From the NCBI GenBank assembly GCA_002559145.1, contig NTXX01000006.1, positions 1,163-65,162 of the forward strand: a stretch of DNA of 64,000 nt. The letters run 5' to 3'. The position numbers and the translations under genes are program-made. This stretch comes from Bacillus sp. AFS006103. Its GTDB lineage: Bacteria > Bacillota > Bacilli > Bacillales > Cytobacillaceae. The notes under the pieces are model-generated. The model was not told the origin of the DNA. It saw nothing but the letters and a program-made list of their open reading frames with translations, and made no database searches. Below are positions 3,998-54,490 of the stretch, piece after piece; the stretch's first letter is position 1, and every line of letters starts with the position of its first letter.

Positions 3998-4082
3998 GTG
4001 CCTGACACCGATTAATTCACTCACGCCAAAGTTGGTGCCCGGCACCAAAAAATTCGCCCCCGCAACCTTGGTGCCTGACACC
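3998..4082. repeat. Three tandem 36-37 bp units headed by GTGCCTGACACC
   Basis: GTGCCTGACACC (3998), GTGCCCGGCACC (4035) and GTGCCTGACACC (4071) begin successive units of 37 and 36 bp, the third cut short by an A-run. The filler sequences are alignable (an A/T run, then TTC, then a C-rich stretch), so this is a decayed tandem duplication and not three chance motifs. It lies between the mntP promoter region and the ywlC terminator. Confidence 0.75.
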
Positions 4083-4085
4083 AAA

Positions 4086-4124
4086 AAAAAAACACCCGGT
4101 CCCCTCGTCGGGGAACCAGGTGTT
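4086..4124 (-). terminator. Strong terminator of ywlC
   Basis: On the minus strand AACACCTGGTTCCCC pairs with GGGGACCGGGTGTT around a GACGA loop and runs into a T tract. The stem begins at the ywlC stop codon. Confidence 0.9.
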
Positions 4125-9742: not shown

Positions 9743-9825
9743 CTTACACCTCCCATTACTATCATGCCCGGTCTCCTCGCAACAGAACGAGTGAAATCTT
9801 TCCAAGTTCCTAGTTCCTCGACATG

Positions 9826-9951
9826 ATTCCGCCGAATCTGAAAGGAATTCCGCCAACTTCGTTATTAATTCCGCCGATTGCCAAGTTTATTCCGCCAAAC
9901 CTCACTGGAATTCCGCCGGATCCCATGATTATTCCGCCAAACCCCAAATCC
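9826..9951. repeat. 21-bp phased array with ATTCCGCC core, six units
   Basis: ATTCCGCC begins at 9826, 9847, 9868, 9889, 9910 and 9931, exactly 21 bp apart each time. The 13 bases between cores are mostly unrelated. Reading the plus strand gives an open heptad series (IPPNLKG, IPPTSLL and so on) without a ribosome site. The array fills most of the 308-bp gap between the lipoprotein start and the tdk stop. Confidence 0.9.
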
Positions 9952-17715: not shown

Positions 17716-17820
17716 AGTTTTATACAATTTTGGGGTCCTTTTGTTCATTTTTCGAATCGATTAATACAAATTTTATATACTTTTGTTCATTTTTTGAGGG
17801 GTTTTGTACAATAAGACAAT
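17716..17820. repeat. 21-bp phased array with TTTTGTWCA core, five units
   Basis: TTTTATACA, TTTTGTTCA, ATTAATACA, TTTTGTTCA and TTTTGTACA start at 17718, 17739, 17760, 17781 and 17802, exactly 21 bp apart. The intervening 12 bp are AT-rich and variable. The array fills the space between the convergent ywjG and pyrG terminators. The same core and period recur at 28476. Confidence 0.85.
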
Positions 17821-17880
17821 ATTTGGAAACCTATGCCAGTAATTATGCGAAACCGGCTTGTTGATTTAACATCAAAAAAT

Positions 17881-27539: not shown

Positions 27540-28391
27540 TTATTGGTATGTATAAAAGCCGCGTCCTGTTTTCTTACCGAGCCAGCCTGCTTTTACATAT
27601 TTGCGAAGAAGCGGGCACGGACGGTATTTGTCGTCGCCAAAGCCCTGGTGAAGCGTTTCCATAATATAAAGACAAGTATCTAAGCCGATAAAGTCTGCCA
27701 AGGTTAACGGCCCCATTGGGTGGTTCATGCCGAGCTTCATCACTTCGTCGATCGCTTCCTTCGTGGCTACACCCTCGTAAACCGTATATATCGCTTCGTT
27801 AATCATTGGCATGAGAATCCGGTTTGAAACAAAACCGGGGAAGTCGTTGACTTCAACGGGTACCTTGCTTATGGTTTTTGTCATATCTTCAATGACTTGG
27901 TACACTTCGTCAGCCGTCGCAAGCCCTCGGATAATTTCGACGAGCTTCATGACTGGGACGGGATTCATGAAATGCATACCGATGACTTTTTCCGGACGCT
28001 TGGTTGCCGCCGCAATTTCGGTGATAGGCAGTGATGAGGTATTGCTTGCTAGAATTGTATGAGCTGGGGTAATTTCATCGAGTTGGGCAAAGATGTTTGT
28101 TTTAATAGCCATATTTTCAACGGCCGCTTCAATGACGAGGTCGACATCACTGGCATCCTTAAGGTTGGTGGAAGTAGTGATATTACCGAGAATGTCCTGT
28201 TTTTGCTCTTCCGTGAGGCGTCCTTTGTCAACGTTCCGTGTTAGTAGTTTATTGATTCCGGCATAGCCGCGTTCCACAAATTCGGGCTTTAAATCATTTA
28301 AGATGACCTTGTAACCGGCCTGGGCACATACTTGAGCAATCCCGGAGCCCATTTGACCGGCACCGATGACCATAAGCTTTGAAATCTTCAT
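27540..28391 (-). CDS. hbd: 3-hydroxybutyryl-CoA dehydrogenase
   Basis: An NAD(P)-dependent oxidation of L-3-hydroxyacyl-CoA to 3-ketoacyl-CoA in short-chain beta-oxidation (MmgB type in bacilli). The 283-residue protein starts with the Rossmann motif [19 protein letters not shown]. The catalytic histidine is in [15 protein letters not shown], and the C-terminal domain carries [17 protein letters not shown] and [15 protein letters not shown] at 28391 follows GGAGGGG. A perfect hairpin lies just before the ribosome site. Confidence 0.95.
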
Positions 28392-28407
28392 TTTTTCCCC
28401 TCCGTAG

Positions 28408-28439
28408 CAAGGTCGGAACAAGTCCGACCTTGATTTTTT
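28408..28439 (+). terminator. Perfect hairpin with T tract on the strand opposite hbd
   Basis: CAAGGTCGGA and TCCGACCTTG form a 10-bp stem. On the plus strand it is followed by ATTTTTTTATAC, so it has terminator form for antisense transcription, although no plus-strand gene precedes it. On the hbd strand it would sit in the leader, about 15 nt before the start codon. Confidence 0.6.
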
Positions 28440-28475: not shown

Positions 28476-28601
28476 TTTTGTTGAATTTCAAAGATGCATT
28501 GTGCAAATTTCACCAAGTTTTGTTCAATTCTTAATAGGTTTTGTGTATTTTTTTAATTGTTTTGTACAAAAATCAACGTGTTTTGTACAATTAGCCAATA
28601 T
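28476..28601. repeat. 21-bp phased array with TTTTGTWCA core, six units
   Basis: TTTTGTTGA, CATTGTGCA, TTTTGTTCA, TTTTGTGTA, TTTTGTACA and TTTTGTACA start at 28476, 28497, 28518, 28539, 28560 and 28581, exactly 21 bp apart. The 12-bp fillers are AT-rich and unrelated. It occupies the thl-hbd intergenic space within an otherwise compact operon. Confidence 0.88.
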
Positions 28602-28642
28602 ATGGATAATCCTCACAGTCTTTTAAACTTGAAAACTATTAA

Positions 28643-29830
28643 TTATCCGCGTGGAACCTCAATCATCACGGCATCCCCTTGACCGCCACCGCTGCAAATC
28701 GCTGCAATCCCAATCCCGCCACCGCGACGCTTTAACTCGTGCATTAATGTAAGGATAATCCGTGCCCCGCTGGCACCTATCGGATGACCTAAGGCAACTG
28801 CACCGCCATTAACATTGACCTTTTCTGGGTCCAGTCCGGCAATTTTTCCGCTTACTAATGCCACTGCAGCAAAAGCTTCATTGATTTCAAATAAGTCCAC
28901 TTCCGCCAAGCTTTTTCCTGTTTTTCTTAACAGCTCATTAATAACAAGTCCAGGTGTTTTCGGGAAATCCTTCGCTTCCACAGCGACTGCGGCATGGCCA
29001 ACAATCACCGCTTCAGCGACACGACCTTCTTGATGGGCGCGCTCCTCACTCATTAACACGAGGGCAGCCGCACCGTCATTGACCCCAGGGGCATTCCCTG
29101 CTGTAATTGTACCGGTCGAATTAAATACTGGGGCTAATTTAGACAGCCGTTCAAGGGACGTATCCTTCCGCGGTGATTCATCATGCTCGACAACAACGGC
29201 AGTTCCTCTTAGCTGCGGCACCTCAACAGCCACGATTTCTTCAGCAAATTTCCCGCTCTCGATTGCGGCAACAGCAAGCTTGTGGCTTCGCAATGCCCAC
29301 TCGTCCTGTGCCCCGCGGCTAATTTCCATATCGGCAGCCGATACGTTGCCGTAAGTGCCCATGTGAGCGCCGGTAAAGCTGCAAGTCAAACCGTCATGAA
29401 TCATTAAATCTTTGACCTGCGCATCGCCCATTCGGAAACCCCAGCGTGCTTTAGGGAGAATATATGGGGCATTGCTCATCGATTCCATTCCACCTGCGAC
29501 AATCACTTCCTCATCGCCGGCACGGATGATTTGGTCGGCCAAGGTGACACTGCGCATTCCAGACGCACAAACCTTATTAATCGTTTCCGTTTTCACTTCC
29601 CATGGCAGTCCAGCATGTTGGGAAGCTTGGCGTGAGGGAATTTGTCCCTGTCCCCCTTGTAAAACCGTTCCGAGGATGACTTCCTGAACATCTCCAGGCT
29701 TCACTTCTGCACGGATCAATGCTTCTTTGACAGCAATTCCTCCTAGCTGTGAAGCGGTAAGGCTGCTTAATGCTCCTCCTAATTTTCCAAATGGCGTTCT
29801 AACTCCACTTAAAATAACTGTTCTCCCCAT
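28643..29830 (-). CDS. mmgA: Acetyl-CoA acetyltransferase (thiolase)
   Basis: Cleaves 3-ketoacyl-CoA to acetyl-CoA, or condenses two acetyl-CoA. The 395-residue protein has the nucleophilic cysteine in INKVCASGMR (Cys88), the His of NEAFA and the second catalytic cysteine in CSGGGQGDA at the C-terminus. It resembles MmgA/ThlA of bacilli. It is followed by hbd and two acyl-CoA dehydrogenases, which complete a short-chain beta-oxidation set except for enoyl-CoA hydratase, which is not in the window. Confidence 0.94.
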   Translation of the reverse strand: MGRTVILSGVRTPFGKLGGALSSLTASQLGGIAVKEALIRAEVKPGDVQEVILGTVLQGGQGQIPSRQASQHAGLPWEVKTETINKVCASGMRSVTLADQIIRAGDEEVIVAGGMESMSNAPYILPKARWGFRMGDAQVKDLMIHDGLTCSFTGAHMGTYGNVSAADMEISRGAQDEWALRSHKLAVAAIESGKFAEEIVAVEVPQLRGTAVVVEHDESPRKDTSLERLSKLAPVFNSTGTITAGNAPGVNDGAAALVLMSEERAHQEGRVAEAVIVGHAAVAVEAKDFPKTPGLVINELLRKTGKSLAEVDLFEINEAFAAVALVSGKIAGLDPEKVNVNGGAVALGHPIGASGARIILTLMHELKRRGGGIGIAAICSGGGQGDAVMIEVPRG

Positions 29831-54180: not shown

Positions 54181-54450
54181 GAAGGACATTTTCCGATTCC
54201 CAATTGGGATTTGCCCTTCTTCGATTTCATGAAGGACATTTCTCTCGACTTTCCACGAGGATTTGCCCTTCTTCGATTTCATGAAGGACATTTCTCTCGA
54301 TTTTCCATGAGGATTTGTCCTTCATCGACTTCATGAAGGACATTTCTTCTGATTTTCCATGGGAATTTGTCCTTCATCGACTTCATGAAGGACATTTCTT
54401 CCGATTTCCCATGGGGATTTGTCCTTCATTGACTTTATGAGGGATATTTT
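54181..54450. repeat. 52-bp tandem array, five units plus a partial one
   Basis: Units start with GAAGGACATTT at 54181 (50 bp), 54231, 54283, 54335 and 54387 (52 bp each). A decayed sixth starts at 54439 with GAGGGATATTT. Each unit contains GAAGGACA and the inverted TGTCCTTC or TGCCCTTC about 30 bp apart, so each can fold. The array occupies the centre of the 461-bp convergent gap between modB and moeB. It has no open frame, since 52 is not a multiple of 3. Confidence 0.92.
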
Positions 54451-54490
54451 TCTTTTTTCAAAGGTATTATTGAATTGTTTGCACCTCTAA

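What the first reader, a model, noticed from the sequence alone, without database searches (positions are those of the whole stretch)
28476..28601. Six-unit 21-bp phased array in the thl-hbd gap, sharing its core with the array at 17716
Six cores with consensus TTTTGTWCA stand exactly 21 bp apart, while the 12 bp between them have drifted freely. Constant period and conserved core with free spacers suggest selection on one face of the helix (two turns per unit) or a phased RNA/DNA-binding repeat, not a recent tandem duplication. The same core and period recur 10 kb away in an unrelated context. I know of no described function.
Basis: partly seen in the sequence, partly recalled or inferred. 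Interest (0 to 1): 0.72.

Follow-up and report, generated by a model that had tools for sequence, protein, structure and literature searches.

The report
Phased repeat arrays left of oriC
A short, evenly spaced DNA repeat between two metabolic genes turns out to be one copy of a conserved set of repeat arrays that cluster on one side of the replication origin in Neobacillus bacteria and whose core letters differ from species to species, which hints at an undescribed, fast-changing protein-binding system, possibly for chromosome positioning.

Summary
The second array (17718-17829) has the same design. A sequence model finds the design in 43 of 61 Neobacillus genomes (E up to 0.01): units TTTTGxyz-N13, mostly 3-6, ending in WTTAGACAWTWTnTGGAAA.

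Beyond the finding: (1) xyz is a genome 'dialect' (TAC, TTC, GAC, GCT, TCT, TGC, TCC), largely shared by unlinked arrays of one genome but different at the same orthologous gap in other species. (2) Between related genomes cores change less than spacers. (3) In 11 genomes, 31 of 46 arrays lie within 0.4 Mb LEFT of dnaA (3.1 expected), 3 in the mirror stretch. (4) Two genomes where the model finds nothing carry 21-bp arrays, mostly with other cores, in the same left region.

Best reading: head-to-tail binding sites for an unidentified DNA-binding protein, possibly a centromere-like region where B. subtilis keeps most RacA sites. RacA is an unlikely reader: its DNA-binding helix is identical between dialects. 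Resident Rep_3 initiators, TnsB transposases and coding repeats fail tests. Function is inferred, not shown.

The parts
28476..28589 (+). six units, 21-bp period, cores TTTTGTTGA, CATTGTGCA, TTTTGTTCA, TTTTGTGTA, TTTTGTACA, TTTTGTACA, in the gap between the thl-like (28643-29830, -) and hbd-like (27540-28421, -) genes
28590..28608 (+). terminal motif ATTAGCCAATATATGGATA (family form WTTAGACAWTWTnTGGAAA)
17718..17810 (+). five units, 21-bp period (TTTTATACA, TTTTGTTCA, ATTAATACA, TTTTGTTCA, TTTTGTACA), in the gap behind pyrG
17811..17829 (+). terminal motif ATAAGACAATATTTGGAAA of the second array
9824..9946 (+). array of another core family, six TTCCGCC(A/G)A units at 21 bp, between a lipoprotein-like gene and tdk; G007 has a TTCCGTG/CCCGCG array in the same gap

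Best explanation
Shown: the array is one of a conserved set of intergenic arrays with constant features (TTTTG plus a T-run frame, 21-bp period, terminal motif) and a variable one (three core letters, largely shared within a genome and different between species), concentrated 0.13-0.35 Mb left of oriC. Inferred: each array is a row of head-to-tail binding sites, one per two helix turns, for a chromosomally encoded DNA-binding protein not yet identified; protein fills the units cooperatively, perhaps starting at the terminal motif, so that several large complexes form on the left flank of the origin. Inferred with less certainty: these complexes are a redundant centromere-like region that positions or anchors the origin-proximal chromosome, most likely at sporulation, in the place where B. 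subtilis has most of its RacA (ram) sites. The protein's specificity shifts repeatedly and the arrays follow.
For: Position: 31 of 46 family A arrays of 11 genomes lie within 0.4 Mb left of dnaA, 3 within 0.4 Mb right, 3.1 expected in each; 10 of 11 genomes have at least one on the left. Two genomes without a model match (G041, G007) hold 21-bp arrays in the same left region, mostly with other cores, and 80 kb of the right mirror of G036 hold none. Constraint: over eight overlapping pairs of related genomes the core differs at 57 of 1160 positions, spacers at 239 of 1402, flanks at 587 of 3304; positions 6-8 differ at 4-6%, positions 15-21 at 13-30%. Dialect: core identity of arrays of one genome at different sites 0.796, of different genomes 0.46 (different site) and 0.53 (same site); 0 of 500 label shuffles reach 0.796. 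On a RacA gene tree the dialects need 12 changes (least possible 9, shuffled mean 20.7). PMC4949633 (passages seen): B. [quoted passage not shown]
Against: No reader protein was found. Arrays at orthologous sites are not independent, so the position counts overstate the evidence. Arrays also occur far from the origin (12 of 46 beyond 0.4 Mb on either side), and family C (TTTTGTAGAA) arrays lie 1.0-3.2 Mb away. Some genomes hold two dialects (G022, G049, G056, G050, G023), so one reader per genome is too simple. For arrays with different cores, spacers show little or no homology, so change in place is not proven. In one pair (G037-G047) the core is hardly more conserved than the spacers (9/89 against 15/116).
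Confidence: 0.35

Rival explanations
1. Local regulation or insulation: the arrays are operators or roadblocks of a transcription factor acting on neighbouring transcription units.
For: All arrays classified lie by eye in intergenic gaps; of 16 sites, 13 are between co-directional genes, 2 convergent, 1 divergent (background gaps of at least 150 bp: 176, 48 and 69).
Against: The neighbours (pyrG, upp, thl-hbd, pta, ywqA-like, minD; my reading) have nothing obvious in common; arrays sit in both orientations relative to the genes (8 and 5 co-directional sites); local regulation does not predict clustering left of oriC.
Confidence: 0.2
2. Decoy sites against iteron plasmids: chromosomal arrays titrate or handcuff invading Rep initiators, as iterons in trans cause incompatibility; dialects track the plasmids.
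For: The format equals Rep_3 iterons: 20-22-bp direct repeats at 6 of 7 plasmid rep regions fetched for this and at 2 clear and 1 weak of 6 rep loci in Neobacillus. A family C array matches repeats about 440 bp from the rep gene of L. amylovorus p2 (E 1e-5) and a family A array repeats about 1.2 kb from rep of M. osloensis pMOXF1 (E 3e-3).
Against: Of nine array searches against plasmids and phages, five gave no match or none near a rep gene, one a chance-level match; one of the hits has no annotated rep gene in view. Any 21-bp repeat will tend to hit iterons. The Rep_3 loci of Neobacillus have other cores. Decoys need not cluster left of oriC.
Confidence: 0.12
3. Relics or ends of a mobile element (Tn7-, Mu- or IS21-like), inserted at preferred gaps.
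For: A constant terminus with repeated inner sites resembles such ends (recalled); related copies of TTCCGCC arrays lie within 20 kb of each other; in G008 and G022 three genes between minD and spoIVFA are flanked by two arrays in direct orientation.
Against: Mu-transpos_C proteins occur in 21 of 61 genomes and not in array-bearing G000, G036, G008, G022, G035, G046, G047, G050, G060; no IstB hit of the own genome lies at an array; arrays are one-sided; cores are conserved at orthologous gaps.
Confidence: 0.13
4. The arrays are the RacA (ram) sites of Neobacillus.
For: A RacA homologue is found in 61 of 61 genomes, and the arrays lie where ram sites lie in B. subtilis.
Against: The HTH is identical between TAC genome G008 and GAC genome G018 and nearly so in 50 aligned genomes and B. 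subtilis (which helix reads DNA is recalled), while the core letters change; B. subtilis ram is a GC-rich inverted repeat (recalled, no call). All 61 hits are under the family's curated cut-off.
Confidence: 0.06
5. Recent tandem duplication or a coding repeat without function.
For: 21 bp is seven codons; some units are recent copies (two identical spacers in the G049 thl-hbd array); 14 of 86 arrays lie within an open frame of at least 90 codons.
Against: Five of six frames of the finding's array hold stops, spacers differ within most arrays, cores are conserved across species.
Confidence: 0.02

Closest known systems
RacA/ram sporulation centromere of Bacillus subtilis
   Same: Redundant sites mainly in about 250 kb left of oriC (PMC4949633, passages); RacA is present in 61 of 61 Neobacillus genomes.
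   Different: ram is a GC-rich inverted repeat (recalled); here direct 21-bp arrays with changing cores, and the RacA DNA-binding helix does not follow the dialect.
Iterons of Rep_3 plasmids
   Same: Head-to-tail direct repeats of 20-22 bp, a few copies, one site per two helix turns.
   Different: Chromosomal, at conserved gaps, spacers diverged, dialect per genome; Rep3_N proteins in only 6 of 61 genomes.
Ends of Tn7/Mu-type transposons
   Same: Repeated sites about 20 bp apart next to a constant terminus (recalled).
   Different: One-sided, at orthologous gaps, and the transposase family is absent from many array-bearing genomes.
Chromosomal parS
   Same: Sites of a DNA-binding protein near the origin.
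   Different: parS is a conserved 16-bp palindrome (recalled); these are direct repeats with variable cores.

Membership tests
RacA ram centromere | sites enriched left of oriC | tested here: met
   31 of 46 arrays within 0.4 Mb left of dnaA
RacA ram centromere | read by RacA | tested here: inconclusive
   indirect: DNA-binding helix identical in G008 (TAC) and G018 (GAC); no binding data
RacA ram centromere | GC-rich inverted-repeat motif (recalled) | tested here: not met
   direct T-rich 21-bp repeats
RacA ram centromere | loss impairs chromosome segregation or positioning | not testable with these tools
   needs a genetic experiment
Rep_3 iteron origin | 20-22-bp direct repeats in several copies | tested here: met
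   312 of 336 steps are 21 bp; rep regions compared
Rep_3 iteron origin | next to a rep gene that binds them | tested here: not met
   neighbours are other genes; Rep3_N in 6 of 61 genomes
Tn7/Mu-type transposon end | cognate transposase in the genome | tested here: not met
   PF09299 in 21 of 61, absent from nine array-bearing genomes named in the text
Tn7/Mu-type transposon end | two inverted ends | tested here: not met
   no inverted pair seen in the position lists (the first two are capped lists)
chromosomal parS | conserved 16-bp palindrome (recalled) | tested here: not met
   cores are not palindromic overall and vary
CRISPR array | identical repeats, unique spacers, cas genes | not tested
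   short degenerate cores make it unlikely; no cas search was run

The most novel reading that the evidence does not exclude
Neobacillus has a one-sided, redundant, centromere-like region built of iteron-format arrays read by an undescribed DNA-binding protein whose specificity keeps changing, so that most arrays of a genome switch dialect together: a bacterial counterpart of fast-evolving centromeres.
Probability: 0.22. Interest if true: 0.92.

Novelty: categorically new. Interest (0 to 1): 0.74.

Why it matters
If the reading holds, a whole genus uses an undescribed chromosomal site system near the origin, and the recurrent change of its core letters at many unlinked sites is a natural experiment on how a DNA-binding protein and dozens of its sites change together. 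It also marks a place to look for origin-positioning machinery in sporulating bacteria other than B. subtilis. Even if the function is different, genome-wide core change at orthologous intergenic arrays needs explaining. I rate it categorically new because each known family that I tested failed at least one defining feature; the format of the sites by itself is iteron-like.

Tried and rejected
Recent tandem duplication: rejected for most arrays, since spacers differ within arrays; a few units are recent copies (two identical spacers in the G049 thl-hbd array).

Change of the core in place with spacers kept: my first impression from single pairs was not borne out. For arrays with different cores, spacer identity is 0.442 at the same site and 0.457 at different sites; the offset-tolerant score gives a weak signal in the least similar class (p 0.001), none in the next (p 0.87), and clear homology only for arrays with like cores.

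IstB/IS21, TnsB-type and Rep_3 proteins as resident factors: not supported. RacA as reader: unlikely. Viral origin: 13 IMG/VR stretches hold the triple TTTTGTWCA pattern, most of them by eye coding repeats; one (L133) lies beside a protein with weak similarity to replication initiators; 0 for the TTTTGGACA triple. DnaA-box cluster: the recalled box TTATCCACA differs from all cores; not pursued.

Literature: the ten searches listed no paper that by title or abstract start describes such arrays; only open-licence PMC papers are held, so absence in print is not established.

For one search I took 46 places in 11 genomes and left out by eye 7 chance or coding places, 6 family C places (given apart) and the draft genome G000; G051 and G048 had no match. 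The regions behind one search were fetched around arrays, so its density is not a genome average.

Full report
What is there. The gap between the thl-like and hbd-like genes holds six units 21 bp apart (28476-28589), followed by a 19-bp motif (28590-28608); a second array of five units with the same motif lies at 17718-17829. Simulated sequence does not come near the score, and no other period from 15 to 29 does in the real window.

One design. In the own genome the exact pair of cores occurs in five arrays; four end in the same motif and the fifth, at a contig edge, is cut; the letters at the cut match the end of an IS256-like element at L262 (element type recalled). In the genus the exact pair occurs 73 times in 14 of 61 genomes, the reversed control twice. 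A sequence model of the last four units plus the motif finds matches in 43 of 61 genomes at E up to 0.01 and, at E up to 0.001 in 193 genomes of the family, in 36 of the genus and 13 others, two of them (one genus) with ten matches each and eleven with one. An exact search for the junction of core and motif names N. niacini, N. vireti, N. novalis, N. soli, unnamed Neobacillus and Bacillus strains, and one record titled Paenibacillus.

Anatomy. Over 86 arrays of at least three units the unit reads TTTTG (positions 1-5), three letters xyz (6-8), two looser positions, a T-run (11-14) and seven loose positions. 312 of 336 steps are 21 bp. Between related genomes positions 6-8 differ at 4-6% and positions 15-21 at 13-30%; the terminal motif is conserved up to position 28 of the last unit except position 22 (42%), after which 19-62% differ. 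The letters xyz were not used to call units, but the loci had been found with patterns and a model that contain them, so some bias remains. Summed over eight overlapping genome pairs the core differs at 57 of 1160, spacers at 239 of 1402 and flanks at 587 of 3304 positions; one pair (G037-G047) shows little difference between core and spacer.

Dialects. The commonest letters are TAC in G008, G022, G037, G046, G047, G049; TTC and TAC in G000 and G036; GAC in G018, G019, G034, G035, G043; GCT in G012, G014, G023, G060; TGC in G051, G052, G054, G057; TCC in G055 (G012, G051 and G055 rest on one array each). Unlinked arrays of one genome agree (0.796, 135 pairs) more than arrays of different genomes at different sites (0.462, 3124 pairs) or at the same site (0.528, 369 pairs); 0 of 500 shuffles reach the observed value. 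The gaps are orthologous: 16 arrays in the pyrG gap (two from G035), 14 in the thl-hbd gap, 13 at a ywqA-like gene, 11 behind upp, 6 behind pta (gene names are my reading). On a RacA gene tree the ten dialect labels need 12 changes (least possible 9, shuffled mean 20.7), with TAC, GAC, GCT and TGC each needing two or more (six forks are weak). Against a simple story: some genomes hold two dialects, each array one (G022, G049, G056, G050, G023), and spacer homology between arrays with different cores is weak or absent.

Other families. A core-blind scan of 511 kb, mostly fetched around arrays, finds 33 arrays at period 21 and at most 5 at any other period from 10 to 39; a few are coding repeats such as rpoE. 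Cores include TTCCGCCAA, TATCTACACAA, TCGCCGATAT, TTTACTCGCGAATT and GCAAATAA. The tdk gap holds TTCCGCCAA units in the window and TTCCGTG/CCCGCG units in G007, and the pyrG gap of G007 holds TTGGCC/T units: these two sites keep their kind of array while the core changes.

Place. DnaA lies at C65:193518 of the own genome, about 164 and 175 kb from the two window arrays. With dnaA placed in complete genomes and arrays from one search, 31 of 46 arrays of 11 genomes lie within 0.4 Mb left of dnaA, 3 within 0.4 Mb right, 12 elsewhere; 3.1 expected in each 0.4-Mb stretch; six family C arrays lie far from the origin. Orthologous sites recur, so these counts are not independent; 10 of 11 genomes show at least one left-flank array. 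In two genomes without a model match, 160 kb each of the left region hold period-21 arrays (G041 three, G007 five, not counting three coding-looking matches), 80 kb each from elsewhere hold one match each (that of G007 looks coding), and 80 kb of the right mirror of G036 hold none.

Mechanism. Constant frame, constant period, conserved core and free spacers are what a row of protein-binding sites looks like; the format equals that of Rep_3 iterons. The place equals that of the RacA sites of B. [quoted passage not shown] of PMC6593407 I saw passages only). A RacA homologue is present in 61 of 61 genomes (all under the curated cut-off of 165 bits), but its DNA-binding helix does not follow the dialect (50 genomes aligned). 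I therefore propose an unidentified reader and, with lower confidence, a centromere-like role. Local regulation, plasmid decoy and mobile-element relic are kept as rivals.

Noticed in passing
window 9824-9946; L024 6148, 9940, 14822, 16557, 17084; L126: A second family of 21-bp arrays with TTCCGCCAA cores; several copies within 20 kb share spacers, so they look like dispersed duplicates.
   Followed up: partly
G022, G049, G052: TTTTGTAGAA-type arrays of period 21 lie 1.0 to 3.2 Mb from dnaA, unlike family A.
   Followed up: no
L295 2140-5400 (G008) and L296 (G022): Between minD and spoIVFA three genes (my reading: a collagen-like or BclA-type domain protein, an S-adenosylmethionine decarboxylase-like and a spermidine synthase-like gene) are flanked by two arrays in direct orientation, both with GAC cores although these genomes are mostly TAC.
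   Followed up: no
L026 1-25 (own genome C21 edge) and L262: The upp array of the own genome is cut at a contig edge by letters that match the end of an IS256-like element in G022.
   Followed up: partly
L092, L122: Two or more arrays stand in tandem with different dialects (GCT then TCT), each with its own terminal motif.
   Followed up: no
L371 15381-15800 (G007): Three near-identical arrays in tandem (146-bp spacing) with GATATCAGCGGTTT cores about 261 kb left of dnaA.
   Followed up: no
window 54181-54453: Tandem array of a 52-bp unit, 5.3 copies, 86% matches.
   Followed up: no
window 3998-4088; L003 about 1330; L101: GTGTCAGGCACC-type repeat recurs near several arrays and at 3998-4088.
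   Followed up: no
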